From NCBI RefSeq assembly GCF_963853665.1, contig NZ_OY970459.1:5239300-5303299 (forward strand): a stretch of DNA of 64,000 nucleotides, read 5' to 3'. Position numbers and translations under genes: made by a program. The stretch comes from Mycobacterium decipiens (GTDB lineage: Bacteria > Actinomycetota > Actinomycetes > Mycobacteriales > Mycobacteriaceae). This document shows positions 30,340-46,252 of this stretch, in pieces; the first letter of the stretch is position 1; every line of letters begins with the position of its first letter. The notes under the pieces are model-generated. The model was not told where the DNA came from. It was given only the letters and a program-made list of their open reading frames with translations, and made no database searches.

Positions 30340-32199
30340 TCAAAGCGCTATCGGCACGTGCTTTTCCGCGCAGGCATCGACCACCGCGGTGACGACATCC
30401 TGGGTGCGCAGCGCTTGCAGGTCCTCGATCGTCACCGAACCCTTCGCGCTGCGATGCTGGGCGGCCACCCGGGAGTCGCGCAGCCGCTCGGCGCGCTCGA
30501 CGACGTTGCGCGCGAACCGCCCGTTGTGCATGACGTCGATGCCATGGCCGCCGTCGGGCGCCTGGTAGGCGCGCAACGTGGCACAGGCAGCGTTCAGCGC
30601 TTCGGCGGCCGCGGCTTCGATAACGGTGGCACGCGGCTTTCCGTAGCGGACCGCGATCTGGACCAGCTCGGCAGGTGTGTAGGACTCGAAGCGCAATTTG
30701 CGGTTGAACCGACCCGCCAGACCCGGGTTGACGGTGAGAAATTCATCGACTTCCTTCTCGTATCCCGCGCCGATGAAGCAGAAGTCGAACCGGTGCACTT
30801 CGAGTGCCACCAGCAGCTGGTTGACCGCCTCCATGCCGATCATGTCCGGCCGGCCGTCCTGATGCCGCTCCACCAGCGAGTAGAACTCGTCCATGAACAA
30901 AATGCGGCCCAGCGAGCGGTTGATCAGTTCGTTGGTCTTCGGACCCGAGGCCCCGATGTGTTCACCGCAGAAGTCGGCTCGCTTGACCTCGATGATCTCG
31001 GGATGACGCACGATCCCCAGGCCCGCATAGATCTTTCCCAGCGCCTCGGCGGTAGTGGTCTTTCCGGTACCGGGCGGACCGACCAACAGCATGTGGTTGG
31101 TTTGATTGGCCACCGGCAGCCCGGCCGCCAGTCGCAGCGCCCGGACCTCGATCTGGTCCTCCAGTTCGGCCACAGCCCGCTTGACTTCGGCCAACCCGAC
31201 TTGATTGTCGAGCAGCGCGCGCCCCTCTTCCAGCAACTCGTTGCGCCGCTCTTCGTGCTCGGCCTCTTGGCGCTGCTGTGCGGACCGCTGGGTGCTGACG
31301 TCCCATTTGTCGGTTCGGCTGCGGATGGCTTCCTCGTCGGTGACCACCAGCTGCAGGGTGGGATCGGCCAACGCCTGCTTGGCAGGCTCGATCAGCGCGC
31401 CGTTGATCGTCGCCTTGGACAGCCACACCTGCGCCTCGTGTTCCTCCCCCAGTTGGCGATGTGCCATCCCACGCACATAGGCCAGGTCCGCCGCGATCAG
31501 CGGGAACTCGTGGGGATCGATCGCGGTGACGGCGGCGTCGACGCGGTGGCGACGCGACTCGGTTGGGCTTGGGTGTCCGGTGCGGATCTCGACCCGATCC
31601 GTCCAGTCGAGCGCGACCCGCGCCTGCCCGAGATGAGCCGCAGCATGGGCAGCAAGGGTGCTCGTCGCAGCGGTGACCGCCGCCATGATGATGGCCTGTG
31701 GGGGCAAAATGGCCGCGGCCACCGCGATGACATCCGGCCAGCGCTGCGCAGCGAACATCAGGTAGGCCTCGATGTACTGCTGCCACTGGTGATTCTCCCA
31801 GGTGTCCAGTAGCGATGAATCCGCCAGCAACGCTTCGGCTTTCCCGTACTGGCGATCGTCGATCAGGGCGCTCGCCAGCGCCAGGCCGGCGTGAGATGAC
31901 TCGGTCACCGAAATCGACAGGTACGGACCGGCTTTGATGGGCGCTGATAGGCGCACACCCAATCGGTTCGTTTCGCGGTGTAGCCGAGCCCCGTACGCGT
32001 AGAGCTGCTGCACCGTCGGCAACGACTCTTCGCCCGCGGCGATCCGGCCGAGCCAGGCGTCGGCCATCGACGGGTCGATCTCGGTGGCTTCCCGGAACCG
32101 CGCCCCGGCCGCGGCGGCATCGGTGTCCAACAATGCCATCGCCTGATCGAACCGCTTGCGCGCAGCGGCCGTTGCGGTGCCGGTGGTCCTGTTGGTCAT
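30340..32199 (-). CDS. eccA2: EccA2, ESX-2 AAA+ ATPase
   Basis: A 619-residue CbbX-type AAA+ ATPase, paralogue of EccA1. The N-terminal part (about 1-340) is TPR-like; the AAA+ domain has Walker A GPPGTGKT (about 383-390), Walker B GRILFMDEFY and a sensor stretch PGLAGRFNRKLRF. The ATG overlaps the eccE2 stop (ATGA). It is the last gene of the minus-strand ESX-2 operon. The frame is intact although the motor and channel genes eccC2/eccB2 are not present nearby. Confidence 0.94.
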   Translation of the reverse strand: MTNRTTGTATAAARKRFDQAMALLDTDAAAAGARFREATEIDPSMADAWLGRIAAGEESLPTVQQLYAYGARLHRETNRLGVRLSAPIKAGPYLSISVTESSHAGLALASALIDDRQYGKAEALLADSSLLDTWENHQWQQYIEAYLMFAAQRWPDVIAVAAAILPPQAIIMAAVTAATSTLAAHAAAHLGQARVALDWTDRVEIRTGHPSPTESRRHRVDAAVTAIDPHEFPLIAADLAYVRGMAHRQLGEEHEAQVWLSKATINGALIEPAKQALADPTLQLVVTDEEAIRSRTDKWDVSTQRSAQQRQEAEHEERRNELLEEGRALLDNQVGLAEVKRAVAELEDQIEVRALRLAAGLPVANQTNHMLLVGPPGTGKTTTAEALGKIYAGLGIVRHPEIIEVKRADFCGEHIGASGPKTNELINRSLGRILFMDEFYSLVERHQDGRPDMIGMEAVNQLLVALEVHRFDFCFIGAGYEKEVDEFLTVNPGLAGRFNRKLRFESYTPAELVQIAVRYGKPRATVIEAAAAEALNAACATLRAYQAPDGGHGIDVMHNGRFARNVVERAERLRDSRVAAQHRSAKGSVTIEDLQALRTQDVVTAVVDACAEKHVPIAL

Positions 32200-33749
32200 C
32201 AGGGCCTGGCCGCCGGTTCGAGCTCAGAGCCACGCAGCGTCGTCGGTTCGGACGATACGTAGCGGTTCTCGGCCCGGAACAACTCAACCTCCACCGTGTG
32301 CACCTGACCCGCTGCCGCAACCGTCACCGTGGCCGGACCTGTCTGTGTGATAAGCACATTGACGTTGCCCCGGCATGGCACATCCGGTTCGCCGACGGAG
32401 ATCAAGGTGTTTGGACGTGGTGCCGGCGTGAGGGTACCGTCCACCACGCTCACCGTCGTGCCCGCGAGCGGCTTGGGCTGATCGCTCACCACGATATCGG
32501 GCATCCGAACGCTGGCCCACCGCTGCACGTTTCGAGTGTGCACCGTAATTCGCTCGCCTGCCCCGGCCATACGAACCACAATGCGCTTGGCCAACGAATC
32601 GTCCGCGGCAATGTGCACGCGGCTGCACTCCCCCGGGTCGTCCAATGGCAACAACAACCGGTTGCCGGCACCGACCTTGCCGAGCAGCACACCCGACGGC
32701 CCGATCGGAATGACCAGCGGCCCGGTCAAAGCCCCACGGCGAATGCCCCGCAACGACGGCGTGGGCCCACACAGGTTGGCCGCGACGGCCTGGGCTTGCT
32801 CGCCGGGCAACGCCTGCAGCATCATGCTCGGCGGAGCTGTCGGCGGTTGTGCGCTGCGCACCGTCACGGTGGCGGTGGCGGTGGCAGCGGCAAGATCGGG
32901 GCCAAAAAGTGTGATGTTCTGCATGATCCCGTCGGCGCGAGCCGACCAGGCTTGGGCCAACTTCTCCGCGGTGACGTCTGCTGGCCGGTACCAGTAGGTC
33001 GTCAACCACCCGCTCTCACCGCGTACCGAACGCCAACGCCGATTGCGTAGATCCAGTGCGGATCTGCCCAGTCGCCGCTCCATCTCGACGATGTCGGTGG
33101 CGGTCGCAACTTTCGCGCGGATCCCTCGTTGGCGCATAGCCGCACTGATCCGCTGCGCTGCTGCCAGGGTCGCGGCCCCGACCGAGGTGCGCCACTGCAG
33201 CGCCTCGGCGTTGTCGAGGGCACAGATTCGTATGATGAGCCAGGTTTCCCGCTGACCGGCATAGGGTGGCGTGCCGATCAGCGTGTCATAGACCCGTGGG
33301 TAGTCACCGACGCTGCGCCGCCTGGCCCCGGCGCTGACCACGCTGAGCGAATCCACCTTGAGACCGAGGCTGTGCTGCAGCAGTGGAAGCAAATCCGCGA
33401 TATCGAAGGCGTTTTCGGTGTGTGTTGAGGTTGAACCGGTGAATAACGTTGGTGTATGCGACTTCCCGAGCAGCTGCACGGCGGCCACCGCGACACCGTC
33501 CTGGAATCGAACTCCGCCGCCAGCGCGGTCGTTGGCCACCGTCAGGGGGTCAGTCCAGTCGATCGGCCTTCCCTGCCGACACCACAGGATGAGCCACGAC
33601 CACAGCGGCTGACCCCACCACGGGACCACACCGGCGACCACTGCGATTGCCAACCCGACTGCGGCATAACGGCATCCGCCGACCGTCCAGCCGACCAGGA
33701 CCGAAACCAAGATGCCGACGATGATCGCCAGCTTAGTCGCGGCGGTCAT
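32199..33749 (-). CDS. eccE2: EccE2, ESX-2 membrane component
   Basis: A 516-residue EccE family protein. Two N-terminal transmembrane helices (about 5-25 and 28-45; LAIIVGILVSVLVGWTVGG) precede a cytosolic domain with the EccE pattern (GVRFQDGVAVAAVQLLG; LTTYWYRPADVTAEKLAQAW). Overlaps of 4 bp on the mycP2 side and with eccA2 show a tightly coupled operon. Low overall similarity to EccE1 is normal between ESX systems. Confidence 0.92.
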   Translation of the reverse strand: MTAATKLAIIVGILVSVLVGWTVGGCRYAAVGLAIAVVAGVVPWWGQPLWSWLILWCRQGRPIDWTDPLTVANDRAGGGVRFQDGVAVAAVQLLGKSHTPTLFTGSTSTHTENAFDIADLLPLLQHSLGLKVDSLSVVSAGARRRSVGDYPRVYDTLIGTPPYAGQRETWLIIRICALDNAEALQWRTSVGAATLAAAQRISAAMRQRGIRAKVATATDIVEMERRLGRSALDLRNRRWRSVRGESGWLTTYWYRPADVTAEKLAQAWSARADGIMQNITLFGPDLAAATATATVTVRSAQPPTAPPSMMLQALPGEQAQAVAANLCGPTPSLRGIRRGALTGPLVIPIGPSGVLLGKVGAGNRLLLPLDDPGECSRVHIAADDSLAKRIVVRMAGAGERITVHTRNVQRWASVRMPDIVVSDQPKPLAGTTVSVVDGTLTPAPRPNTLISVGEPDVPCRGNVNVLITQTGPATVTVAAAGQVHTVEVELFRAENRYVSSEPTTLRGSELEPAARP

Positions 33750-35386
33750 CGTTCCCGCCGCACGCGGGAGATCAGCGACGCCGCCGCGACTGCCGCCGCA
33801 ACTACGCCGGCGAATACCAACGCGACAGTGCGGGCACGGTGGTCCGGCGGTGGCGGGGGCGCGGCCGGGGTAATCAGCCGGCTCTGCGCACCGGGTGGAA
33901 GTCGTTGCGCCGCAGGCACATCAAACGTCAACGCAGCCACCGGGTCGACCACGCCGTAGCCGACTTGATTATCAACTCCGCGCGGGGGGTTGTGCGCGGT
34001 CTGCAGAATCCGGTTGATGATCTGATGAGCGGACAGCCCCGGATATTTGGCCCGCACCAACGCCGCCACCCCGCTGACATAGGCGGCAGAGAAACTCGTG
34101 CCCCAGATCGGCATGTTCTTGTCGCCCGGGTGGATCGGTGGATAGGCGTTTACCGGTCCCCCGGTTGCCGGGGACAACCCCATGATGCCGACTCCAGGTG
34201 CCGCGGCCGACACCCAGGGCCCGGCCAGGCTCTTACCAATCGGTGCACCCGTATTGTCCACCGCACCCACCGATAGCACGTAGTCGGAGAACACCGACGG
34301 CGATGACACGGTTCTGACTTGATGCCAATCGCGGGGATCCGACGTGTTCAACGGGTCGAATGACGGGTTCTGGGCGCAGCCATCCTCGCTGTCGTTGCCG
34401 GCCGCGGCCACAACCACCGCGTCTTTCACGGTGGCGGCATACCAGACAGCGGCGCCGAGGGCGCCTTGATCGAGTGGGTCCGCGGCCGACACGCAGGATG
34501 TCACGCTGATATTGATCACCTTGGCGCCCATGTTGGCGGCGTGCACGATTGCGCTGGCAAGCGACGCGATCGAACCCGCCTTCTTGCGCACCTCCATGTC
34601 GCCGGGCGCGGGGTTAGCCGGTTCGTAGGCCCGCGATGATTGGCGGATTGACATGATCACCGCGTGTGGCGCGACACCGACGACTCCGTCGGGTGCACCC
34701 AGCGGCGGGGGCGGCACCTCGGAATCGTCGGTTGGGCCCGAGCCGGGCTCCCCCGGTGCGTTGGACGGCTCGTCTGGCGGTGGTGGCGGCGCCGGCTTGG
34801 TTTCGGTGACCGTCACCGGGGCCGGCGGCGGCGGCGGTGCTGGCGGTGGCGGTGGTCCCCCAGGAGGTGGTGGCGCCGCGTCGGTCGCCGGCGGCCCCGC
34901 CGGTGGCGGGAAGGCGGGCGCGCTCGGCATCGGGGCGGGCATCGGGCTGCCTTGCGGGGCAGCGCCGATCACCGACGCCACGATGGTGCCGTGGGCGTCG
35001 CAGTCCAACAACCCGTCGCCGCCCATGATGTAGTCACCGCCGGCGACCACCGGCAGCCGCGGACCGGGGTTGATCCCGGTGTCGATGATGGCGACCGGCA
35101 CCCCGTTGCCAGTCGAATATTGCCAGGCCTTGCTGATGTCGAGCATCGCGAAGCCCGGTGCGGTGACCGCGACATTCGGGTCGGCGACCGTAATCGTCCG
35201 CGCGCAAATGTTGCTCTGCCGCATCGGCTGGTCCGGGCCTGGTTTGCCATCTGCCGGTACCCGCCCGGGATCGACACTTGGTGGCGGAATCGCCTGTGCC
35301 GCGGGAAGGCTCGTCGGCAGCGCGATAAGTGCGCACGCCAGTGCCATGGCGGGGATCCGGCGGGCCGCAACAGCAATCCGGTTCAC
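33746..35386 (-). CDS. mycP2: MycP2, ESX-2 mycosin
   Basis: A 546-residue subtilisin-like protease. It has a signal peptide (MALACALIALPTSLPAAQA), catalytic Asp102 (IIDTGIN), His132 (CDAHGT) and the serine in GTSFSAAYVSG, and a C-terminal membrane helix (VALVFAGVVAAAVAAASL). A Pro-rich insertion at about 143-225 (PPPPGGPPPPPAPPPPP) separates the His and the rest of the domain, as in the M. tuberculosis protein. The start is GTG at 35384-35386, overlapping the eccD2 stop by 4 bp (GTGA). All catalytic residues are present. Confidence 0.94.
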   Translation of the reverse strand: MNRIAVAARRIPAMALACALIALPTSLPAAQAIPPPSVDPGRVPADGKPGPDQPMRQSNICARTITVADPNVAVTAPGFAMLDISKAWQYSTGNGVPVAIIDTGINPGPRLPVVAGGDYIMGGDGLLDCDAHGTIVASVIGAAPQGSPMPAPMPSAPAFPPPAGPPATDAAPPPPGGPPPPPAPPPPPAPVTVTETKPAPPPPPDEPSNAPGEPGSGPTDDSEVPPPPLGAPDGVVGVAPHAVIMSIRQSSRAYEPANPAPGDMEVRKKAGSIASLASAIVHAANMGAKVINISVTSCVSAADPLDQGALGAAVWYAATVKDAVVVAAAGNDSEDGCAQNPSFDPLNTSDPRDWHQVRTVSSPSVFSDYVLSVGAVDNTGAPIGKSLAGPWVSAAAPGVGIMGLSPATGGPVNAYPPIHPGDKNMPIWGTSFSAAYVSGVAALVRAKYPGLSAHQIINRILQTAHNPPRGVDNQVGYGVVDPVAALTFDVPAAQRLPPGAQSRLITPAAPPPPPDHRARTVALVFAGVVAAAVAAASLISRVRRER

Positions 35387-36873
35387 CGCATACGCACCCA
35401 GGTGAACAGCCCGCCGATCCAGGCAGCCAGCGGGAGCGCCGCGATAATTGCTGCTATCTCTAGCCATTCGGCGGCCATCCGCACCAGCGGGGTGAACCGG
35501 GTGATCGGCACCAGCAGCGCGGCCACTAGGCCCGCGCCGCCGAATGCGGCCAGTATCAGTGCCCCCCACACCATCGAATGCCCGCCTGCAGGCTGGTGCA
35601 CAACATATTTGACGACGCCGGCGCATGTCGCCGCCGCGGCACCGCACACCAGCGCCACAGCCTGGCGCTTATCGGCGAACGCCCTGCCACGGCTGATGAA
35701 GATCACCACAAAGAGCCCGGCCAGCACCGCGGCCGCGGTCCCGCGGTCGCGCCCCGGTAGCAGGGTGGCCCACACCCCGGCCGGGAGCGCCAGTCCGGCG
35801 CCCCAGCAGATTCCGGTGAGCACCTCGTTGGCGCGTACCGCAGCAGCGGCGATCCGCGCCCCCCGCGGGGTGGTATCGGGATTGACGTCCTCGTCGGTCG
35901 CCTCGTCGACCGGAGCGACCGCATCAGCCGGCAGGCCTGCGCTACGACGGAACAGATCCCGCCCGGTGATGGATCCGAAGTACGGGGGCCGGATCCGGGC
36001 GACCCAAAGTGCGATCGTCGGGGCCAGGGTCAGCACCAGCAGCAGCGCGACCAGGGTGCACATCCCAAGCCATTGGGCAGGAATCGGCCACCACATTCGG
36101 GCCGCCGCGACCGTCCCGCCAAGTCCGCACAGGGTCACGACCGTCGCCGCTATCGGGATATGGCGGCGCATCGCCGTGGCCATTCCGCACGTCAGCACCG
36201 CGGCCGCCAAGGCGGCGATGAACAGGTGCGCTGATCCGAGCTTCCCGGGCGCGCTGCCGGCAAGGCTTGCCGCGAGCAATGGCACCGCGATCCAGCCGAG
36301 TCCGTCGAGCATGTCGCCGCGATGCGGCCACCAACGCCACACCACGCCCGCACCACCGGCGGCCAACAGCCCGGCAACGCCGGTCACGAGGCCGGGCCCC
36401 AGAGCGTCGCTGCAGCTGCGTTCGCGCACCGCCAACCCGAGCGCCGTCACCGCAACCATCGCCAGAATGACCAGCGCCGTGTGGGCCGCGGTTTGCACCG
36501 TGACCGGTTCGAACAGCCTCTTCCCGATCCGAGCCAGTCCGGTGGACAACGACTCGTACTGTGGTTCAAACGATTCGCCGTCCACCGCGGGCACCAGAAC
36601 CAGCGTCGCCCCGTCCTCGACGCCGAGTTCGTCGAGCGTCTTGGTGACATCCAGCCGCACACCGTTGGCCTTGTGCAGCTCGTATCCGGTGCCGGGCTGC
36701 AGCCCGCTGAAGCCCCGGCGCTTGAGTTCGTCGTTGAGCAACTCCACGACGTCGTCGATGAAAACCTCGATCGGCACCGACGCCGGATATACCTGTGAGA
36801 CGAGGTGTTCTCCACATACGACGGCCACCGCACACCGTGGCGGAAACGACACCTTACCCAACAACGTTGTCAC
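35383..36873 (-). CDS. eccD2: EccD2, ESX-2 polytopic membrane component
   Basis: A 496-residue protein with the ubiquitin-like N-terminal domain (CAVAVVCGEHLVSQVYPASV; LDELGVEDGATLVLVPAV) and about eleven transmembrane helices from residue about 125. The GTG start at 36873 shares one base with the stop of the upstream MinD-like gene (TAGTG). The frame is complete. Confidence 0.93.
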   Translation of the reverse strand: MTTLLGKVSFPPRCAVAVVCGEHLVSQVYPASVPIEVFIDDVVELLNDELKRRGFSGLQPGTGYELHKANGVRLDVTKTLDELGVEDGATLVLVPAVDGESFEPQYESLSTGLARIGKRLFEPVTVQTAAHTALVILAMVAVTALGLAVRERSCSDALGPGLVTGVAGLLAAGGAGVVWRWWPHRGDMLDGLGWIAVPLLAASLAGSAPGKLGSAHLFIAALAAAVLTCGMATAMRRHIPIAATVVTLCGLGGTVAAARMWWPIPAQWLGMCTLVALLLVLTLAPTIALWVARIRPPYFGSITGRDLFRRSAGLPADAVAPVDEATDEDVNPDTTPRGARIAAAAVRANEVLTGICWGAGLALPAGVWATLLPGRDRGTAAAVLAGLFVVIFISRGRAFADKRQAVALVCGAAAATCAGVVKYVVHQPAGGHSMVWGALILAAFGGAGLVAALLVPITRFTPLVRMAAEWLEIAAIIAALPLAAWIGGLFTWVRMR

Positions 36874-37901
36874 TAACGCGGCCGATCGGCATCTGGAGTG
36901 TATTTATCCGCCAGCGCCGCGGTGATCTCGAATAGCCGCAGCCGGGTTCTCCCCCTCAACTCGTGCCGTGTGTCAATTATCCCGCCCCTTGCGAGATACG
37001 GATCGTAGGGCATGAATTCGACAGTCGCCCCGGACTGTCCGAATCGTTCGGTAAGATATGCGCGCGCATCACGATCGTATTTATTCCGGCTGTCGTTGAG
37101 AATGACGGTGCTGCGGGACACCAACTCGTGATACCCCATCGACCGCAGCAGGTCGATCGCACGCGTCACCGGCAGCGAGGTATCGGCAGTCAACCCCGAC
37201 ACGAAAACCAATGTGTCGCACGCATCGAGCACCGCCTTCATCACCGGGTGCTCCAGGTCATCGGAGGTGTCGACCACCATGACGGTGTGCGTACGACGCA
37301 GCCGCGACAGCACACCGGTGAACATCGACGGCACTAGCGGCCGCGGTTGGTCCGATGCCCGGTTTCCGGCCAGTACATCGAGTCCAATACTGTTCTGCCC
37401 CAAGTGCTCTCGGATATCCGCGTAGCCCTGCACGTCGGTATCGTTCAGCACGGCCGAGTAGTCGCCCGGTGGGGACTCATCGATCCGCCCGGCCAGCGTT
37501 CCGAAGCCGGGCGCTGCATCGATGGCGACTACATTCTCGGGCCGACACTCCCGAAAGGCGGCGCCGATGCATGCGGTGAGCGTGGTCTTGCCGACACCAC
37601 CTTTTCCCGAGACCACCCCGATGATGTATTGCTTTCGGATATGGCGCCGGATCCGCTCCTGCAATTCTCGGTAATGCCTTTCGGCAGGCGATTCCCCTAG
37701 ATTGATGGTCCGGAAAGACGTCCCGTAGATGAACTTTCGCCAGCCCGAGCCGGGAGGGATCTTGCGAGGCGCGACCATATCGGATATCCGTAATGTTCCG
37801 GATACGGAATCCTGGTGCTGATAGCGCGCAGCGTGCGCTTCTCGCCGCGTCACTTCATTTTGCTCGGAAATACTGGATGACGCCTTCCACGGATTTGTCA
37901 C
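36873..37901 (-). CDS. MinD/ParA-like ATPase in the ESX-2 locus (Rv3888c-like)
   Basis: A 342-residue ATPase of the MinD/EspI group. Walker A is [10 protein letters not shown] (about 97-106); AIDAAPGFGTLAGR and MVVDTSDDLEH provide the A' and B motifs. The C-terminus has the EspI-type ending YDPYLARGGIIDTRHELRG then a terminal helix. By position it is Rv3888c, whose function is not established; EspI-like regulation of ESX-2 is a guess. It starts with GTG. Confidence 0.88.
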   Translation of the reverse strand: MTNPWKASSSISEQNEVTRREAHAARYQHQDSVSGTLRISDMVAPRKIPPGSGWRKFIYGTSFRTINLGESPAERHYRELQERIRRHIRKQYIIGVVSGKGGVGKTTLTACIGAAFRECRPENVVAIDAAPGFGTLAGRIDESPPGDYSAVLNDTDVQGYADIREHLGQNSIGLDVLAGNRASDQPRPLVPSMFTGVLSRLRRTHTVMVVDTSDDLEHPVMKAVLDACDTLVFVSGLTADTSLPVTRAIDLLRSMGYHELVSRSTVILNDSRNKYDRDARAYLTERFGQSGATVEFMPYDPYLARGGIIDTRHELRGRTRLRLFEITAALADKYTPDADRPR

Positions 37902-37937
37902 GCCGCCCCTGCTATCATTTTCGTGATACCCTCTCGA

Positions 37938-38771
37938 CTACACAACTTTTCGGTACGAATGCCATTCTTGGTCGGCGGGTAGGCGCCGCACCAAATGGTT
38001 GATGGCGGAAGCGATGTTGCTCTTGGTACCGGGGGCGACGATCATCCATTTTTTGCCTGCGGACGATACGTTCTCGGCGACCAGTCGTCCCTGGGGAATG
38101 TCAATGATCGCCACCGCGGTTTCCTCGATGTGGGTCTGGCCGCATCGGGCCGTGTGCACCCCGGACTGGATCGCGACGATCGAGGCTTGCGCTGATCGGC
38201 TGGGGTCTGCGGCCAGCCCGAGCATCCGCAGCTGATCGGTCGCTAGCCGTTGATCGGCCAGGAAGGTGCCCAGTGTGTGCTGATCGGTCGCGGCTGCGCG
38301 CATGGCATCCGCGTCCAGCGTGACCGGCCGCAACGGCGCGGGCGGGTGCACGCCACACAGCCGCTCGATCTGTGCGTTGAGCACCGTCCTGGCCGTCCCT
38401 TCGGCGCTGGCGGTTCCGGCTCCGCTCACGCGGATCAGATCCGCGGACCGCTCCATCACCACCCACCATTGCGCGAACCTGGCGAGCAGCGCCCGCGCGG
38501 GTTCGTCCTGAGCAGGCATGCACAGCTGCATGAACAACGCGACATCGCGGCGGGAGAGGACGGTTAGCCATTCCACCACAGCGCTATCCACCGCGTCCGA
38601 CTCGTCGATCGCCCCGACGGCCCGCAGTTCGGCCGTCACCGGGTGTTCGAGTGCCAGCCGCTTGGGTTCGACGCTGGGCAGGTGGGGCCGCAGCCCTAGC
38701 TCTGGAGCCACGGTTTCGATACCGGTAAGCACCTGCAGGGCCCATAGGCCGTCCACTGTGGTGGTTAACAC
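37938..38771 (-). CDS. espG2: EspG2, ESX-2 PE/PPE chaperone
   Basis: A 277-residue EspG family protein (LTTTVDGLWALQVLTGIETV at the start; IIDIPQGRLVAENVSSAGKK near the end). Its expected clients are the ESX-2 PE36/PPE69 pair, whose genes are missing from this locus. I chose the GTG at 38771 to match the M. tuberculosis start; the frame continues upstream without family similarity. Confidence 0.92.
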   Translation of the reverse strand: MLTTTVDGLWALQVLTGIETVAPELGLRPHLPSVEPKRLALEHPVTAELRAVGAIDESDAVDSAVVEWLTVLSRRDVALFMQLCMPAQDEPARALLARFAQWWVVMERSADLIRVSGAGTASAEGTARTVLNAQIERLCGVHPPAPLRPVTLDADAMRAAATDQHTLGTFLADQRLATDQLRMLGLAADPSRSAQASIVAIQSGVHTARCGQTHIEETAVAIIDIPQGRLVAENVSSAGKKWMIVAPGTKSNIASAINHLVRRLPADQEWHSYRKVV

Positions 38772-38832
38772 GTTGTCCTCGACATGCCGCGGGGCGCACG
38801 CGATGCGTGCGCCCCTCCTAGGCCTACCCGCC

Positions 38833-39123
38833 CTAGATGAAGGCCTGCTGGATCTGCATGTCGGTTGCCTGGGCACTCTCGGCCGTGTTGTTCACGACGT
38901 GGCTGTGCTGGCTGACCGTCTGGATCAAGCCTTCCAGTCCGTGCAGCATCTGCTGCTGGGCGTCGAAGAAGGCGGTAGCACCCGTGCCCTGGAAGAACTC
39001 GGCGAGCGCTTGGGTGCGCTGTCGGATGTCGTCGTGAATTTCCATCAACACCGCTGCCCGCTGCCCGACATCGGAGGCAAAGCCGGTAACCGCAGCGTAG
39101 TTGTAGGTAATTTGATCTGACAT
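38833..39123 (-). CDS. esxC: EsxC-like ESAT-6 family protein
   Basis: A 96-residue Esx protein in the EsxC position. It begins MSDQITYNYAAVTGFASDVG and has the turn FFQGTGATAFFDAQQQML, where the Trp of WxG is replaced by Phe, as is usual in this subgroup. From memory it is clearly more diverged from M. tuberculosis EsxC (perhaps half identical) than its neighbours are from theirs. It pairs with the esxD-like product 44 bp upstream. Confidence 0.85.
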   Translation of the reverse strand: MSDQITYNYAAVTGFASDVGQRAAVLMEIHDDIRQRTQALAEFFQGTGATAFFDAQQQMLHGLEGLIQTVSQHSHVVNNTAESAQATDMQIQQAFI

Positions 39124-39167
39124 ATCCGTAATCCCCTTGTCGGTCCGTGGGTTGGGAGTGACTGCGC

Positions 39168-39491
39168 TTAGCCGGTCTGGCTTCCGCCGAACAGGCCCGT
39201 GAAGCCATGGGCCGCATCGGCTTCGTGGTTCTCCATCAGCACGGCCGCCCGGCCAAGCCCGTGCGCGAGGCGCTGACCACCAGTCATAACTTGCTGGAGA
39301 TCGTGGTTGATCTGTTCTGCCGTCACCAGCGAACTGGTGCTCGCGCCCCCGCTCCACGACGCCGCCCCGACGACATTCTCGTGACTGCTTAGGTACTCGT
39401 TGGCCACCGCGGTGGCGTGCTGCAGGGCTGATTCGATCGCTTGCTGCGTGCTCCGCAGCAATTCCGGCGTGACAACGGTCGCCTTTGCCAT
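39168..39491 (-). CDS. esxD: EsxD-like ESAT-6 family protein
   Basis: A 107-residue Esx protein with the WSG turn (VVGAASWSGGASTSSL) and the conserved C-terminal LMENHEADAAHGFTGLFG. The same length as M. tuberculosis EsxD, but much substituted by my recollection. AAGGGGATG precedes the start closely. It is now the first gene of the ESX-2 remnant, immediately beside the deletion junction. Confidence 0.85.
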   Translation of the reverse strand: MAKATVVTPELLRSTQQAIESALQHATAVANEYLSSHENVVGAASWSGGASTSSLVTAEQINHDLQQVMTGGQRLAHGLGRAAVLMENHEADAAHGFTGLFGGSQTG

Positions 39492-39756
39492 TTACATCCC
39501 CTTCACTTACTCGGGCTTCCCGGGCTGGGTTATCGCGTCAAGCTAAACCAGCTGTGGTCAGCTGTCACTTCACTTCCCCCCATCCGCGCCCGGCCGAGCA
39601 GGCTGTTCAGCAGTGCACAACAGAACTGCCCGCGTGTCATACGGTAACCCAAACAGGCTGCAAGACAAGGGGAAAGGGACAGAATGTGCATTACCGGGCT
39701 GGTCGGTGCCCGAGGAGCGGGCCTCGCTGGTGGTTAGCAAGTGGGTGGTCTTGCGT
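39492..39756. other. Junction where PPE69 through esxF are missing
   Basis: Only 265 bp separate the esxD-like gene from the calcium-loop protein. In M. tuberculosis the stretch here contains PPE69, PE36, eccC2, eccB2, Rv3896c-Rv3902c, cpnT, esxE and esxF. I find no long frame, transposase, tRNA or clear repeat at the ends. A short in-frame tail ending PGKPE-stop lies just upstream of esxD on the minus strand and may be the last trace of the neighbouring gene. Confidence 0.65.
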
Positions 39757-40266
39757 TCACAAGTTGCTGGCGCCGTCAGCGGCGCCGTCGCCGTTGGTGT
39801 CGGTTAGCCGTACGTTCCATCGACCGTCGCCGTCGGTGTCGACGTATCCGGTCACGCCGTCCTCGCCGGCGCACACCACCCGGTCGGCGACGCCGTTGCC
39901 GTCGGCATCGAGCAATTGGTCATCGAGGTGGCCCTGCCCGTCAAAGTCAACCAACGGACCGCCGGAGTGCTCGGCGCCGTCGAGCCCGAACCAGCGCAGT
40001 TGTCCGCCCCGGTCGACGGCGACCGCCCAGGTCCCCGATCCGTCGTCGGTGAAGTAACTTTCGTAGGTGCCGTCGTTGTCGAGGTCGAGAACGGCATGGT
40101 CGGCCATCCCGTCACCGTCGAAATCCGCCAGCGCGTCATCGTGCAGGCCGTCGCCGTCGAAATCCAGGCCGACCGCATCCAACCGGCCGTCACCGTCGAG
40201 GTCAAGGTCGGGTGGGCGGTTCCACATGTCAGCCGTGCCGTCGTCCCCGCTCAAGCAGTACTCCAC
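39757..40266 (-). CDS. Calcium-loop (DxDGDG) repeat protein, Rv3906c-like
   Basis: A 169-residue protein largely built of EF-hand/dockerin-like loops: DLDGDGRLD, DFDGDGLHD, DFDGDGMAD, DLDNDGTYE, DFDGQGHLD, DADGNGVAD, DTDGDGRWN and DTNGDGAAD. Such loops bind Ca2+ and give a repeat fold. There is no signal peptide or membrane helix. It starts with GTG 25 bp after pcnA, suggesting one transcript with pcnA. M. tuberculosis Rv3906c has the same length. The role is unknown. Confidence 0.8.
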   Translation of the reverse strand: MEYCLSGDDGTADMWNRPPDLDLDGDGRLDAVGLDFDGDGLHDDALADFDGDGMADHAVLDLDNDGTYESYFTDDGSGTWAVAVDRGGQLRWFGLDGAEHSGGPLVDFDGQGHLDDQLLDADGNGVADRVVCAGEDGVTGYVDTDGDGRWNVRLTDTNGDGAADGASNL

Positions 40267-40290
40267 GACTGGTGTGACGGTCCGCCCCGG

Positions 40291-41733
40291 CTAGCGGTTC
40301 CCCCGTTCTTTCCACCAGGCCAGCAGCTCGGCGGTGGCTTCCTCGGTGCTCAACGGCCCGCGGTCCATGCGCAGCTCTTTCAGATAGCGCCACGCCTCGC
40401 CGACTTGCGGGCCCGCCGGAACGCCGAGCAGTGCCATGATCTGGTTGCCGTCCAGGTCGGGGCGCACCCGATCCAGGTCCTCTTGGGCGGCCAGTTCGGC
40501 GATACGCGCCTCTAGCTGGTCATAGTTGGCCCGCAGCCGAGCGGCCCGGCGCTTATTGCGGGTGGTGCAGTCGGCGCGCACCAGCTTGTGTAGCCGCGGC
40601 AGCAAGGGTCCGGCGTCGGTGACGTAGCGACGCACCGCGGAGTCGGTCCACTTCCCGTCGCCGTAGCCGTGGAACCGCAGGTGCAGATACACCAGCTGCG
40701 AGACGTCGTCGATCATCTGCTTGGCGTACTTCAGCGCCCGCATCCGCTTGCGCACCATTTTGGCGCCGACCACCTCGTGGTGGTGAAAGCTCACTCCGCC
40801 GTTGGGTTCGTGGCGTCGGGTAGCCGGCTTGCCGATGTCATGCAGCAGCGCCGCCCAGCGCAACACCAGATCGGGGCCGTCGTCCTCCAACGCGATCGCC
40901 TGGCGCAGCACGGTCAGCGAATGCTGGTAGACGTCCTTGTGCTGGTGGTGTTCGTCGATGGCCATCCGCATGCCACCGACCTCGGGCAGCACCACTTCCC
41001 CCATCTCGGTCTGCACCAGCAGGTCGATACCGGCGACCGGGTCGTCGCCGAGCAGCAGCTTGTCCAGCTCGGCGGCCACCCGTTCGGCACTGATCCGGGC
41101 CAGCTGCGGTGCCATGTCTTCGATTGCCTTGCGCACCCCCGGCGCCACGGTGAAGCCGAGCTGCGAAACGAACCGCGCGGCGCGCAGCATTCGCAGCGGG
41201 TCATCTCCGAAGGACATCGCCGGTGCCGCCGGGGTGTCCAGCACCCGGGCCCGCAGCGCCGCCAAACCGCCGAGCGGATCCAGGAATTCGCCCGGCCCGG
41301 TCGGCGTGACACGCACGGCCATCGCGTTCGCGGTGAAATCGCGGCGCACCAGATCCTCGTCGAGGCGGTGACCGAAACGTACCTCCGGATTCCGCGATAC
41401 CTGGTCGTAGGTGTCGGCGCGGAACGTGGTGATCTCCAGGCGGTAGCCGCCCGTGCCGACGCCGACGGTGCCGAACTCGATCCCGGTGTCCCACACCGCA
41501 TCGGCGAGTGGCCGCACGATCTTCTGCACCTGCTCGGGACGGGCGTCGGTGGTGAAGTCCAGGTCGGGGCTCAGCCGGCCCAGCGCGGCATCCCGCACCG
41601 AACCGCCGACCAGATACAACTCGTGACCCGCGGCAGCGAACGCCGACCCGAGCCCCCGCAGGACGACGGCATGCCTGTTCAAGGCGACCGCGGCGGCGGT
41701 CAGCAGGTCGGCTTCCTGCGCGGCATCAGGCAC
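40291..41733 (-). CDS. pcnA: CCA tRNA nucleotidyltransferase / poly(A) polymerase family protein
   Basis: A 480-residue class II nucleotidyltransferase annotated pcnA in mycobacteria. The nucleotidyltransferase head has YLVGGSVRDAALGR and DLDFTTDARP (catalytic Asp-x-Asp, about 60-62), then RRDFTANAMA and the RMLRAARF segment. The C-terminal HD domain carries LHDIGK and HHHEVVGAKM. It adds or repairs CCA at tRNA 3' ends. It begins with GTG; the end is followed by the calcium-loop gene. Confidence 0.95.
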   Translation of the reverse strand: MPDAAQEADLLTAAAVALNRHAVVLRGLGSAFAAAGHELYLVGGSVRDAALGRLSPDLDFTTDARPEQVQKIVRPLADAVWDTGIEFGTVGVGTGGYRLEITTFRADTYDQVSRNPEVRFGHRLDEDLVRRDFTANAMAVRVTPTGPGEFLDPLGGLAALRARVLDTPAAPAMSFGDDPLRMLRAARFVSQLGFTVAPGVRKAIEDMAPQLARISAERVAAELDKLLLGDDPVAGIDLLVQTEMGEVVLPEVGGMRMAIDEHHQHKDVYQHSLTVLRQAIALEDDGPDLVLRWAALLHDIGKPATRRHEPNGGVSFHHHEVVGAKMVRKRMRALKYAKQMIDDVSQLVYLHLRFHGYGDGKWTDSAVRRYVTDAGPLLPRLHKLVRADCTTRNKRRAARLRANYDQLEARIAELAAQEDLDRVRPDLDGNQIMALLGVPAGPQVGEAWRYLKELRMDRGPLSTEEATAELLAWWKERGNR

Positions 41734-41827
41734 GTTCGATCAGCCTAATGGGAATCGATCGGCGGGCCGCTGAGGGGCTGTGTCCAGAGTCCAGCCCTCG
41801 GCGTTGGCCGGGTGGTCGCGCAACACG

Positions 41828-42814
41828 TCAGGTTGGGAGTGGCTCCAGTTCGTAACCCGCCGGCAGTTTCAATACCTGATTGCGGAAGTCGACCACGTAG
41901 ACGTCACCGTCTTCGGCCACCGCCACACCGTATGGGCAGAAAAGCCCGCTGAAAGGCAGCTCGGACACGGCGTTCGAGCTGGCCGCCAGCATCAGCACCC
42001 GATTGTTGTTCAAGTCCGTGACGAAGACGTTGTTGCCGTGGTCCACCGCGACGCTATTGGGAAAGTCGAGCCCGGTGAACGGCAGGCCGACCGGAGTGGT
42101 TGTCCCCGCGGCCAGCTTCAGCACACGGTTGTTGCCGGCGTCGGCGACGTAGACCGCGCCGGCCCCGTCCACGGCCAGACCGTATGGGTTCTTGAGTCCG
42201 GTGAACGGCAGCTCGGCGGGGGTATCCGAACCGACGGGCAGCTTCAATACCTGGTTGGTGTCATAGTCGGCGAGGTAGACATTGCCGCTGCCGTCCACCG
42301 CCACATCATGCGGTTCGCCAAGATCGGTGAACGGAAGCCGGCTCGGGGTATCGGAGCCAGCGGGTAGTTTCAGCACCCGGTCGTTGTTTTGGTCGACGAC
42401 ATAGAGGTTGCGGTCGCTGTCCAGCGCCAAACCGGTTGGCCGGTTAAGGCCGGTGAACGGCAAGATGTTTGGGTCTTCGGCATCGGGCGCCAGCTCGAGC
42501 ACCCGGTTGTTGCTCGAGTCGGCGACAAAAGCGTTGCCCATGCTGTCGACCGCGACCCCCTCGGGATGCGTGACGGCGAGCGGCAGCACGACCTGGCTAG
42601 GTGAGGGTGGGGCACCCGGCCGCGCGGTCTGCCTGGACGCGGCCGGCCCGGACGCCGCCCGCCCACGGGGCCCGAGGGGCCCAAGGGGAACGTATCCGGC
42701 GATTCCGAGGATCGCGATGATGACGCCAACGCAACACCCGATGGCTAGCGCTGCCGTACGTCGGCTCCGCGGCGCATCGGACTGGGCGGGCCGGCCGGAC
42801 TCGATGTCACTCAT
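41828..42814 (-). CDS. Membrane-anchored NHL-repeat beta-propeller protein (PknD sensor-like)
   Basis: A 328-residue protein with one N-terminal transmembrane helix (about 22-44; AALAIGCCVGVIIAILGIAG), a Pro-rich spacer, then six NHL-type repeats with GLAVDGAGAVYVADAGNNRV and LPFTGL linkers. The repeats strongly resemble the extracellular propeller of the Ser/Thr kinase PknD, but there is no kinase domain. It is probably an extracytoplasmic binding module. The start overlaps the stop of the MFS frame by 8 bp (ATGAGTGA), so both were one operon. I do not recall this gene between pcnA and mutT4 in M. tuberculosis. Confidence 0.82.
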   Translation of the reverse strand: MSDIESGRPAQSDAPRSRRTAALAIGCCVGVIIAILGIAGYVPLGPLGPRGRAASGPAASRQTARPGAPPSPSQVVLPLAVTHPEGVAVDSMGNAFVADSSNNRVLELAPDAEDPNILPFTGLNRPTGLALDSDRNLYVVDQNNDRVLKLPAGSDTPSRLPFTDLGEPHDVAVDGSGNVYLADYDTNQVLKLPVGSDTPAELPFTGLKNPYGLAVDGAGAVYVADAGNNRVLKLAAGTTTPVGLPFTGLDFPNSVAVDHGNNVFVTDLNNNRVLMLAASSNAVSELPFSGLFCPYGVAVAEDGDVYVVDFRNQVLKLPAGYELEPLPT

Positions 42815-43921
42815 AAGAGGATTCCTTTACTAGCCGAGGTGGACTGACGACCGCTATGTCCGGATCAGCCGACGTTGCTGAATCGGATTGGGTAAGCACT
42901 TGCGCAGTTGCCGGTGACCTGTGCGACGGGTCCGCCGCGCGTAGCGCTGCCACGACGGCGATCGCGTTGAGGCCGAGCAGGACCAGCACTGGCCAGGTGG
43001 CGCTGGTGTGTTCGGCGATCGCGCCCAGCACGACGCCGGCCAGCGCCGCCGCGAGCGCCGCGGCCGCCGAAGTGAACCCCACCACATCGGTCGGTCGTGT
43101 TCCCCGGCCAGCTCGCCTATCCACTCGATGCTCGCGGCGTAGACAGCCTGGTCGGCAGCCGCGGCGAGTAGAAACATCAACCCCTGAACCCACGGTTGTA
43201 ACCACAGGCCGGTGGCGTGGGCCAGCACGCAGATCCCGGCGGCGCTCAGGGCCATCAACGCACTGCCGACGAGCATTCCCCGCACCCCCGCCCGGCGATG
43301 AACGAACCGCCACAATATTGAGCCGATCAGCAGCCCCGTGGTGGTGCAGACGACCACCGCCGGCACGCTGTCCGTCCGGTCGGCGCTTCCGGTCGGAACA
43401 TGTAGGGCGTAGAACGTCGCGCCTAGGGTTATCGGCACGAACAGCAGCTGCGTGCTCGCATATCGACGAAACCGCCGGTCCGAACCCAGAACACGCACGC
43501 CCCGGCGAACGATGTCACCGAGCCGCGGAATGGCGGCGGTCGTATGGGCTGAAACGGGGCCGACGAACAAAGTGGCGGCGGCGGCGGCGATCATGCCCGC
43601 CGCGCCCAACCACAATACCGGCGCATCGCCATCCTCGACAGCCCGCGCCGACAACGCAGGTATCACCAGAAACGTTGCGGCGACGATGATTACGGCGCTG
43701 ACCGCATACTCGGTCAGGATCATCGGGCTGCGGCGCCGCAGCGGCAGCTTGGCTGATACCAGTTCGCGGTGAGCACCGTCGGAGATTCCCTTCGCGCCGC
43801 CCAGCGCGCCGTCTTGGACGTCGGCCGGTCGCCAGGGTAGGTCTTCCAGCACCGCGGCGGTTCCACGTGGACCTGCACCGCCAGAAGCGGGCGGATGGCG
43901 ATCGGTGTACATCTGAGCCAT
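42807..43921 (-). pseudogene. MFS-type transporter with a frameshift
   Basis: The minus-strand frame from 43921 has an N-terminal polar leader, then hydrophobic helices (SAVIIVAATFLVIPALSA; GMIAAAAATLFVGPVSA; QLLFVPITLGATFYAL; LLIGSILWRFVHRRAG; MALSAAGICVLAHATG; LMFLLAAAADQAVYAASIEW). At about 43090-43105 the coding sense passes to another frame (VVGFTSAAAALAAALAGVVL, LVLLGLNAIAVVAALRA), ending at 42807. One G is probably missing in a GACCGACCG context. With at most eight helices it also looks shorter than a full 12-helix MFS permease. The substrate is unknown. Confidence 0.7.
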
Positions 43922-44072
43922 ATTTGTAACGCTAGCGGCGGGCGACCTCCGCTACCTCCGCCGATCGGACGGTTTGCCGACGACGGACGTGTCCCATGAT
44001 CGGGGGACCCAGCGCTGCGGGCTGTCCTCGATTTGCGGCGGCAGGCAATCCTCGAGCTGCCCGTGCCAGCTA

Positions 44073-45188
44073 CTAGCGCCGGTTTCCCCCGAGCGCGCGT
44101 TCGACGTCGGCGAGCAGATCATCGGTGTCCTCGATGCCTACCGCAATGCGTGCAAAGCCGTCGCCGACCGGGTCCCCCCAGCGAGCCCGGCGATCTACCG
44201 ACGTGTGGATCCCGCCGAAGCTGGTGGCTGCGATGAGCAGCTCGCTGCGCTGCACCAGAGCGTGCACGGCCGCGGCGTCGGCCAGCTCGACCGACACCAA
44301 GCCGCCGAACCTGCGCATCTGCGCGGCCGCTGCCGGATACGCGGGATCCCCGACCAGTCCCGGATAGCGCACGGCCCGTACGCCCGGATGGCCCCGCAGC
44401 ATCGTCGCTAGAGCCTGCGCGTTGCGGCATTGGCGGTCGTAGCGCAATCCGGCGCTGCCCAGGCTGCGCAGCACCAACCATGCCTCGAACGCACCCAGGA
44501 TCGCACCGGCGAGTATCCGCTGGCGTTCCACGGCGGCCATCAACTCGGGCTGGTTGCCGGCCACGTAACCGGCCAGCAGGTCGCTGTGACCGGACAGGGC
44601 TTTGCTGGCGCTGGCCACCACCAGGTCAGCACCCAGCGACAGCGGCTGCTGGCCCAGCGGCGTTGCCGTGGTGTTATCCACGATCAGACGAGCACCGCGA
44701 TCGTGGCAGATCGCGGCCAACCGGTACAGATCGACCACATCCAGACCCGGATTGGTGGGAGTTTCGGCCAGCACCACGTCGGCACCCGCGGAGACGTCGC
44801 AGATCTGCGAACTCGCCGCCTCGACAACCTTCACCCCGACGGGCACCAGGTGCTCGACGGCATAGCGGCGTACCTGGTAGTAGCCGTCGGCGGGCACCAC
44901 CAACACTGACCCGGGTTGGGTCAGCGCCCGCAGTGCGGCGCCGATGGCCGCCATGCCGGAGCCGAACACCAACGCCCCGGCCGCGCCCTCGAGTTCGGCG
45001 AGCGCCGATTCCAGATGTCGCCAGGTCGGATTGGAGCTGCGCCCGTAGGTGTCCAGGTCGGCGGTGTCGTCGGCCGGCAAGTGGTAGGTGGACGCCAAAA
45101 CCGGGTGTGGCGCCACCGGCTGGCCCGGGATGGCCAGCGACCTGGTCGCTTTCAGGCTGCGAGTGGAATCGCCATACCGACTGGTCAT
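44073..45188 (-). CDS. Cys/Met metabolism PLP-dependent enzyme (cystathionine gamma-lyase-like)
   Basis: A 371-residue fold-type I PLP enzyme. It shows TYGRSSNPTWRHLESALAEL (about 48-67), FGSGMAAIGAALRAL, ETPTNPGLDVVDL, VDNTTATPLGQQPLSLGADL and the PLP lysine in VASASKALSGHSDLLAGYV (about 197). Members cleave or form cystathionine, linking methionine and cysteine. The C-terminal SFGGIHTSVDRRARW is also typical. It is not in the M. tuberculosis pcnA-mutT4 interval as I recall. Divergent from mutT4. Confidence 0.88.
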   Translation of the reverse strand: MTSRYGDSTRSLKATRSLAIPGQPVAPHPVLASTYHLPADDTADLDTYGRSSNPTWRHLESALAELEGAAGALVFGSGMAAIGAALRALTQPGSVLVVPADGYYQVRRYAVEHLVPVGVKVVEAASSQICDVSAGADVVLAETPTNPGLDVVDLYRLAAICHDRGARLIVDNTTATPLGQQPLSLGADLVVASASKALSGHSDLLAGYVAGNQPELMAAVERQRILAGAILGAFEAWLVLRSLGSAGLRYDRQCRNAQALATMLRGHPGVRAVRYPGLVGDPAYPAAAAQMRRFGGLVSVELADAAAVHALVQRSELLIAATSFGGIHTSVDRRARWGDPVGDGFARIAVGIEDTDDLLADVERALGGNRR

Positions 45189-45505: not shown

Positions 45506-46252
45506 GTGTCGGACGGCGAACAAGCCAAACCGCGTCGGCGCCGGGGCAGGCGCCGGCGCCGTCGCGCCGTGGGCCCGGCCGAGAATCCTACGGACGCCCA
45601 ATCGGCCGGTGACGCCACCCCGACACCCGCAACCGCGAAACGATCCCGGTCCCGCTCGCCCCGTCGCGGGCCGAACCGGATGCGCACCGTGCACGAAACA
45701 TCGGCTGGCGGGCTGGTCATCGACGGTATCGATGGACCGCGGGACGCGCAGGTGGCGGCTCTGATCGGCCGCGTCGACCGGCGCGGACGGCTGCTGTGGT
45801 CGCTACCCAAGGGGCACATCGAGCTTGGCGAGACCGCCGAGCAGACCGCCATTCGCGAGGTCGCCGAGGAGACCGGCATTCGCGGCAGCGTGCTCGCCGC
45901 GCTGGGCCGCATCGACTACTGGTTCGTCACCGATGGCCGCCGGGTGCATAAGACCGTGCACCACTATTTGATGCGGTTCTTGGGCGGCGAGCTGTCCGAC
46001 GACGATCTCGAGGTCGCCGAGGTGGCGTGGGTGCCGCTCCAGGAACTGCCGTCCCGGTTGGCCTACGCCGACGAACGTCGACTGGCCGAGGTGGCCGACG
46101 AGCTGATCGACAAGCTACAGAGCGATGGCCCCGCGGCGCTTCCACCGCTACCGCCCAGCTCGCCCAGGCGACGAGCGCAGACGCACTCGCGCACCCGTCA
46201 TGCCGACGAATCAGCACCGGGCCGGAAGAACGGTCACGGGCCGGGGCCGTGA
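45506..46252 (+). CDS. mutT4: MutT4, Nudix hydrolase
   Basis: A 248-residue Nudix hydrolase, the same length as the M. tuberculosis protein. A highly basic N-terminus ([12 protein letters not shown]) precedes the Nudix domain. The Nudix box runs from Gly103 to about residue 125 ([20 protein letters not shown] plus TGI), with REVAEETG intact. It is expected to hydrolyse oxidised or other nucleoside di/triphosphates. The GTG at 45506 gives the conserved start. The stop overlaps the next gene by 4 bp (GTGA). Confidence 0.93.

What the first reader, a model, noticed from the sequence alone, without database searches (positions are those of the whole stretch)
30340..39491. ESX-2 locus without motor or EccB
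eccA2, eccE2, mycP2, eccD2, the MinD-like gene, espG2 and an esx pair are intact and overlapping, but eccB2, eccC2, PE36 and PPE69 are absent here. A type VII system cannot export without EccC, so either these parts lie elsewhere, another ESX motor is borrowed, or the operon has a different role. Open frames despite the loss argue against old decay.
Basis: partly seen in the sequence, partly recalled or inferred. Interest (0 to 1): 0.7.

Follow-up and report, generated by a model that had tools for sequence, protein, structure and literature searches.

The report
Secretion operon split across replication origin
The protein-secretion system that seemed to lack its motor is complete: an old flip of the DNA around the replication origin cut its gene cluster in two and left the motor genes about 63 kb away, a split already reported for this species.

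Summary
eccB2, eccC2, PE36 and PPE69 are missing only from the window: they lie across the replication origin at genome 38886-46112 (+), about 63 kb from the window's ESX-2 block. The chromosome length, 5,303,299 bp, matches M. decipiens ATCC TSD-117, whose split ESX-2 is published and PCR-confirmed (PMC11237670, passages). So the puzzle is solved and the split is known.

Not found in print in my searches: both junctions fit one inversion around the origin with a breakpoint between PPE69 and esxD. The 43 split rows of a 104-row tree form one clade. The two halves have matching histories, against a published lateral-transfer idea. A promoter-like element upstream of esxD is older than the split.

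A true motor-less case exists in relatives: two M. gordonae-clade genomes share one deletion of eccB2-eccC2-PE36, yet their eight remaining genes show purifying selection (concatenated dN/dS 0.100). That is the part worth following.

The parts
30340..32199 (-). eccA2 (AAA ATPase), last gene of the left block
   Evidence: TIGR03922, 649.7 bits
32199..33749 (-). eccE2
   Evidence: TIGR03923, 217.1 bits
33746..35386 (-). mycP2 (mycosin protease); start at 35386 inferred by eye from the translation, the open frame runs to 35647
   Evidence: TIGR03921, 344.8 bits; translation
35383..36873 (-). eccD2
   Evidence: TIGR03920, 326.3 bits
36873..37901 (-). MinD/ParA-like ATPase gene of ESX-2, used as marker of the left block
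   Evidence: PF01656; genus search
37938..38771 (-). espG2 (PE/PPE chaperone family); start inferred by eye, the open frame runs to 38876
   Evidence: PF14011; translation
38833..39123 (-). esxC-like WXG100 gene
   Evidence: PF06013; name by synteny and recall
39168..39491 (-). esxD-like WXG100 gene, first gene of the left block
   Evidence: PF06013; name by synteny and recall
39540..39572 (-). promoter-like element of the left block: TGAAGTGACA at 39563-39572, -10-like box at 39540-39545 (box read by eye)
39573..39756 (.). left junction of the proposed inversion: ESX-2 left block against DUF6802-pcnA; the exact breakpoint was not located
39757..40266 (-). DUF6802-like gene, flank. In unsplit genomes it adjoins r_49.1 instead
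   Evidence: PF20615 match below cut-off
40291..41733 (-). CCA tRNA nucleotidyltransferase (pcnA), flank. The right block, eccB2-eccC2-PE36-PPE69, lies outside the window at genome 38886-46112 (+)
   Evidence: TIGR02692; right block:

Best explanation
The genome encodes one complete ESX-2 system in two blocks on either side of the replication origin. The left block (window 30340-39491) holds esxD-esxC-espG2-MinD-eccD2-mycP2-eccE2-eccA2; the right block (genome 38886-46112, +) holds eccB2-eccC2-PE36-PPE69. One inversion of the origin segment, in an ancestor whose ESX-2 was a single cluster right of the origin, explains the split; its breakpoints were PPE69|esxD and r_49.1|DUF6802. The left block kept an older promoter-like element directly upstream of esxD, so both blocks could still be transcribed. 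Their proteins are expected to assemble in trans into an ordinary ESX membrane complex with its own EccC2 motor. Shown: positions, open frames, reciprocal junctions, one clade, matching histories, purifying selection, the conserved element. Inferred: promoter activity, assembly in trans, secretion.
For: eccB2 and eccC2 located, full length, above the curated cut-offs. Split order: esxD next to DUF6802 in 19 of 19 split genomes read, PPE69 followed by r_49.1 in 14 of 17 motor-bearing ones. Unsplit order: r_49.1 next to DUF6802 in 6 of 6 unsplit genomes whose left end was read. 43 of 43 split rows in one clade of 44 rows, one change of state. Left and right protein distances correlate, r 0.968 in 27 genomes, 0 of 2000 shuffles as high. 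Median dN/dS 0.067-0.216 for the twelve genes. Element in 45 of 45 split loci. Split reported and PCR-confirmed for this species (PMC11237670).
Against: The right junction was not visible in 3 of 17 motor-bearing split genomes; in G000 a kinase gene and in G064 3.3 kb without a query match lie between PPE69 and r_49.1. The left and right trees differ at one deep fork (support 82 against 99). Some members of the clade are damaged: G382 eccB2, G045 mycP2, M. genavense left half. Expression and secretion were not tested.
Confidence: 0.9

Rival explanations
1. The window's operon really lacks a motor and borrows EccB/EccC from another ESX system, or has another role.
For: No motor gene in the window.
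Against: Full-length eccB2, eccC2, PE36 and PPE69 in the same chromosome, with a history matching the left block.
Confidence: 0.02
2. The right block came by lateral transfer after the old one was lost, as PMC6616192 proposed for M. paragordonae.
For: Its proteins are much less like those of M. tuberculosis than other ESX proteins are (PMC6616192 and PMC11237670, passages).
Against: Left and right distances correlate at r 0.974 within 17 split genomes. The right block sits at the same place as in unsplit relatives. G203 and G120, of the M. gordonae clade, keep a PPE69 remnant there, so that clade lost the block. The left block belongs to the same divergent ESX-2 lineage.
Confidence: 0.03
3. 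The split arose in more than one step, for example two nested origin inversions or a transposition, and not by one inversion.
For: Further origin-centred rearrangement has happened, as in G250. Genomes with the other ESX-2 lineage share the post-inversion flank but not the right block.
Against: One inversion gives both new junctions exactly, and the state changes once on the tree.
Confidence: 0.06
4. The split is an assembly artefact.
For: Nothing in the calls.
Against: Same arrangement in 26 of 80 genomes examined; PCR confirmation reported for M. decipiens.
Confidence: 0.01

Closest known systems
Split ESX-2 of M. decipiens and M. riyadhense (PMC11237670, passages seen)
   Same: Very probably the same genome: chromosome length 5,303,299 bp is identical. 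Two genomic sections, PCR-confirmed; low similarity to M. tuberculosis ESX-2.
   Different: The passages I saw give no mechanism, no wider distribution and no selection analysis.
Split ESX-2 of M. paragordonae (PMC6616192, passages seen)
   Same: Eight genes next to ESX-1, four far away; eccB2, eccC2 and pe36 reported absent from M. gordonae.
   Different: The authors infer lateral gain of the second part; speak for common descent and loss in the M. gordonae clade.
Transposed eccB2/eccC2 of the M. avium complex (PMC4791881, passage seen)
   Same: eccB2 and eccC2 away from the rest of ESX-2.
   Different: Probably another event in the other ESX-2 lineage: G338, G365 and G326 show such distances. 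Whether these are M. avium complex was not tested.
Contiguous ESX-2 of M. tuberculosis (Rv3884c-Rv3895c; PMC6616192 and PMC8593097, passages)
   Same: Same set of twelve genes and family names.
   Different: One cluster; a lineage about 50-68% similar in Ecc and MycP proteins. Not compared directly here.

Membership tests
ESX-2 type VII secretion system | Core set EccB, EccC, EccD, EccE and MycP, with EccA and EspG | tested here: met
   NCBIfam matches above cut-off for EccA, EccB, EccC, EccD, EccE and mycosin; Pfam for EspG
ESX-2 type VII secretion system | Closer to ESX-2 loci than to other ESX systems of the same genome | tested here: met
   EccC2 56-81% to contiguous ESX-2 loci against 32-34% to the other EccC proteins of G000 found and 48% to the best plasmid record
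ESX-2 type VII secretion system | EccC with three ATPase domains | tested here: met
   P-loop-type motifs at 551, 914 and 1207; EccCa and EccCb models both match
ESX-2 type VII secretion system | One contiguous gene cluster | tested here: not met
   Two blocks, MinD to eccB2 66 kb. Common but not essential to the name, as published split cases show
ESX-2 type VII secretion system | Secretes its WXG100 and PE/PPE substrates | not testable with these tools
   Needs culture-filtrate proteomics
Motor-less ESX-2 remnant | Left block present, no EccB2/EccC2 in the genome | tested here: not met
   Not met by the window genome. Met by G203 and G120

The most novel reading that the evidence does not exclude
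The eight-gene block homologous to the window's has since been kept under ordinary purifying selection without its own motor.
Probability: 0.5. Interest if true: 0.7.

Novelty: already known. Interest (0 to 1): 0.4.

Why it matters
It settles an apparent paradox: this ESX-2 without a motor is a split operon. It bears on two published readings: eccB and eccC of ESX-2 called absent in M. riyadhense (PMC8356964, passage), although a genome of the same length (G064, 6,155,284 bp) carries both across the origin; and lateral gain in M. paragordonae. The inversion is a marker in mycobacterial history. The M. gordonae-clade remnant is a natural experiment on whether ESX parts can act without their own EccC.

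Tried and rejected
Considered and rejected: loss of the motor in this genome; lateral gain of the right block; the sixth eccB at genome 187459-188841 as eccB2 (it is 90% identical to EccB1); decay of the left block. Repeats at the breakpoints were not searched for. How the kansasii, tuberculosis and avium groups came by their other ESX-2 lineage was not resolved. dN/dS is pairwise Nei-Gojobori with Jukes-Cantor correction and rough near dS 1; pairs without a finite dS were left out of the medians (15 of 120 for EsxD, 4 of 120 for EsxC).

Selections and dropped rows: one search kept the best 80 of 123 related loci, and two come from one genome (L030, L031). One search classified 110 loci; 108 passed a coverage filter and 4 repeats of genomes already present were taken out for the 104-row tree. 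The 45 split loci include genomes seen twice. The medians use 16 motor-bearing split genomes.

Against my reading: see the Against line. The motor-less case rests on two genomes.
Full report
Observation. The window is the last 64,000 bases of a closed 5,303,299-bp chromosome whose record starts at dnaA. The eight ESX-2 genes lie at 30340-39491 on the minus strand with open frames. Upstream of esxD come a DUF6802-like gene and pcnA, not PPE69, PE36, eccC2 and eccB2.

Where the missing parts are. The genome has six EccB matches and five EccC loci above the curated cut-offs. One eccB-eccC pair lies at 38886-44470 (+), right of dnaA, followed by a PE-like gene (no Pfam match; placed by position and similarity to relatives) and a PPE gene ending at 46112. 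Its EccB (500 aa) scores 443.9 bits for TIGR03919 (cut-off 154); its EccC (about 1411 aa) scores above both EccC cut-offs, with P-loop-type motifs at 551, 914 and 1207. They are eccB2 and eccC2: in unsplit relatives their homologues stand directly before PE36, PPE69, esx genes, espG2, MinD, eccD2, mycP2, eccE2 and eccA2. ESX-2 is therefore complete but split; MinD and eccB2 are 66 kb apart on opposite strands across the origin, the nearest block ends about 63 kb (from coordinates).

Already printed. The length equals that of M. decipiens ATCC TSD-117. That paper (PMC11237670, passages) says its ESX-2 genes lie in two distinct sections, confirmed by PCR, with a similar split in M. riyadhense. 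M. paragordonae was reported split earlier (PMC6616192, passages). My searches (listings; passages; one abstract) showed no account of the cause; most subscription papers are not held.

How widespread. EccB2 matches at E 1e-150 or better in 188 of 396 genomes of the genus, MinD at 1e-120 or better in 178 of 396. Of 80 genomes that I chose from the 188, 26 are split (opposite strands, 61-82 kb), 34 contiguous (8-12 kb), 11 have the markers on different contigs, 5 lack a MinD match and 4 are otherwise arranged. Two of those five, G071 and G380, are contiguous clusters without a MinD match, and three have lost most of the left block. Of 80 named loci 27 are split, 46 contiguous, 7 undecided. On a FastTree of 104 rows the 43 split rows form one clade with one undecided M. 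genavense row (local support 100); split/contiguous changes once. Named members include M. simulans, szulgai, angelicum, asiaticum, gordonae, intermedium, sherrisii, triplex and ahvazicum.

How it arose. Names such as r_49.1 give the position in kb right of dnaA in the window's genome. In unsplit genomes the left side of the origin reads leuS (r_54.5), r_53.4, r_49.9, r_49.1, then DUF6802 and pcnA; the right side reads DUF2710, eccB2, eccC2, PE36, PPE69, esx genes and the rest to eccA2. r_49.1 next to DUF6802 was seen in 6 of 6 unsplit genomes whose left end was read: G186, G320, G282, G280, G262, G012. In split genomes esxD adjoins DUF6802 in 19 of 19 read. PPE69 is followed by r_49.1 in 14 of 17 motor-bearing ones, with a kinase gene between in G000 and 3.3 kb without a match in G064; it was not visible in G277 and G242, and G250 is rearranged. 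The two new junctions are the exchange of the two old ones, as one inversion of the origin segment predicts. Unsplit is taken as older because the outgroups have it. Symmetric inversions around the origin are said to dominate in Actinobacteria (PMC5850607, abstract). G250 has eccB2 directly behind eccA2, which a further origin inversion would give.

Not lateral transfer. Distances of the left block (six proteins) and right block (EccB2, EccC2) correlate at 0.968 in 27 genomes and 0.974 in 17 split ones, 0 of 2000 shuffles as high in either. Both trees put the split genomes in one clade (support 100). They differ at one deep fork: the left tree joins four unsplit genomes to the split clade (82), the right tree joins all seven nearest unsplit genomes to each other (99).

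Why the split could be tolerated. TGAAGTGACA stands 76-85 bases before esxD in 45 of 45 split loci, and in 28 of 52 contiguous loci with an EsxD match at 62-96 bases. The 24 misses are 21 of the distant ESX-2 lineage plus L046, L053 and L157 (the last two are one genome). Four contiguous loci had no EsxD match; of nine undecided loci three had it, one did not and five had no EsxD match. A -10-like box 16-17 bases further on was read by eye in the loci looked at. The 10-mer occurs once in the window, at esxD. So the left block probably had its own promoter before the cut, which fell upstream of it. Activity is inferred.

Selection. Over pairs of 16 motor-bearing split genomes (120 pairs; 105 for PE36 and PPE69), median dN/dS is 0.067-0.216 for left genes and 0.083-0.216 for right genes; the highest single pair is 0.483 (EsxC).

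A real motor-less case. G120 (its contig C23 has the same length, 38220, as the M. gordonae DSM 44160 contig of L032) and G203 have the left block, but no EccC above 33% identity to EccC2 and no EccB2 at 1e-150. G203 has six EccB matches: by position and neighbours they are ESX-1, -3, -4 and -5, one extra chromosomal system shared with its neighbours and one on its second contig; none is at the ESX-2 place. G120 has nine, none at that place. Both show the same junction, r_32.3 residue 75 next to PPE69 residue 123, and align across it at 89.5% over 2,911 bp, so the deletion seems older than their divergence and not a recent exchange. Their left genes show no stops. Concatenated dN/dS is 0.100 [0.085-0.118] against 0.106 [0.092-0.121] for the motor-bearing pair G006-G228; neighbouring control genes give 0.120 and 0.125. 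EsxD (0.012), MinD (0.038) and EsxC (0.040) are the most constrained. Two genomes are few, and constraint on single genes does not prove a working secretion system.

The other ESX-2 lineage. G222, G161, G105, G029 and G365 carry an ESX-2 with EccB2 64-65% and MinD 71-73% identical to the window genome's, yet r_49.1 stands on the right next to DUF2710 in 5 of 5, the post-inversion flank, without the right block (3.7 kb between them in G105). M. decipiens is reported closest to M. tuberculosis in its other four ESX systems but not in ESX-2. I infer that the inversion is older than the parting of these groups and that the split lineage was replaced in some. This is not shown.

Verdict. The mechanism, its single origin and the constrained motor-less relatives go beyond the passages I read.

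Noticed in passing
L022:9408-10853 (genome 187408-188853, minus): A lone sixth eccB, 90% identical to EccB1 of the window's ESX-1 locus, with no EccC match near it: a duplicate of unknown use.
   Followed up: partly
L020:6306-8249 (genome 46306-48249, minus): A serine/threonine kinase gene with NHL repeats sits between PPE69 and r_49.1 in this genome; in most other split genomes read nothing matched between them.
   Followed up: no
L117:15417-19998 and L118 (G250): eccA2 is followed by a piece of DUF2710 and then eccB2, eccC2, PE36 and PPE69 on the same strand: the two halves joined again in permuted order.
   Followed up: partly
L210 (G172), L211 (G323), L212 (G004): The matches to the left block are gone except the end of eccA2, which abuts a shortened eccC2; the two closest cases, G172 and G323, share the same match ends.
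   Followed up: no
L207 (G071), L209 (G380): Contiguous ESX-2 clusters without a MinD match between espG2 and eccD2, whose EsxC and EsxD are 77-86% identical to the window's, more than in the window's nearer relatives: a hint that the esx pair can be exchanged.
   Followed up: no
L063 (M. genavense): Left-block genes match in several broken pieces, which suggests decay in this species.
   Followed up: no
G203:C1:5195420-5196874 and its counterparts in G006, G228, G047 and G120: An extra chromosomal EccB of the gordonae-like genomes, a possible source of a borrowed motor.
   Followed up: no
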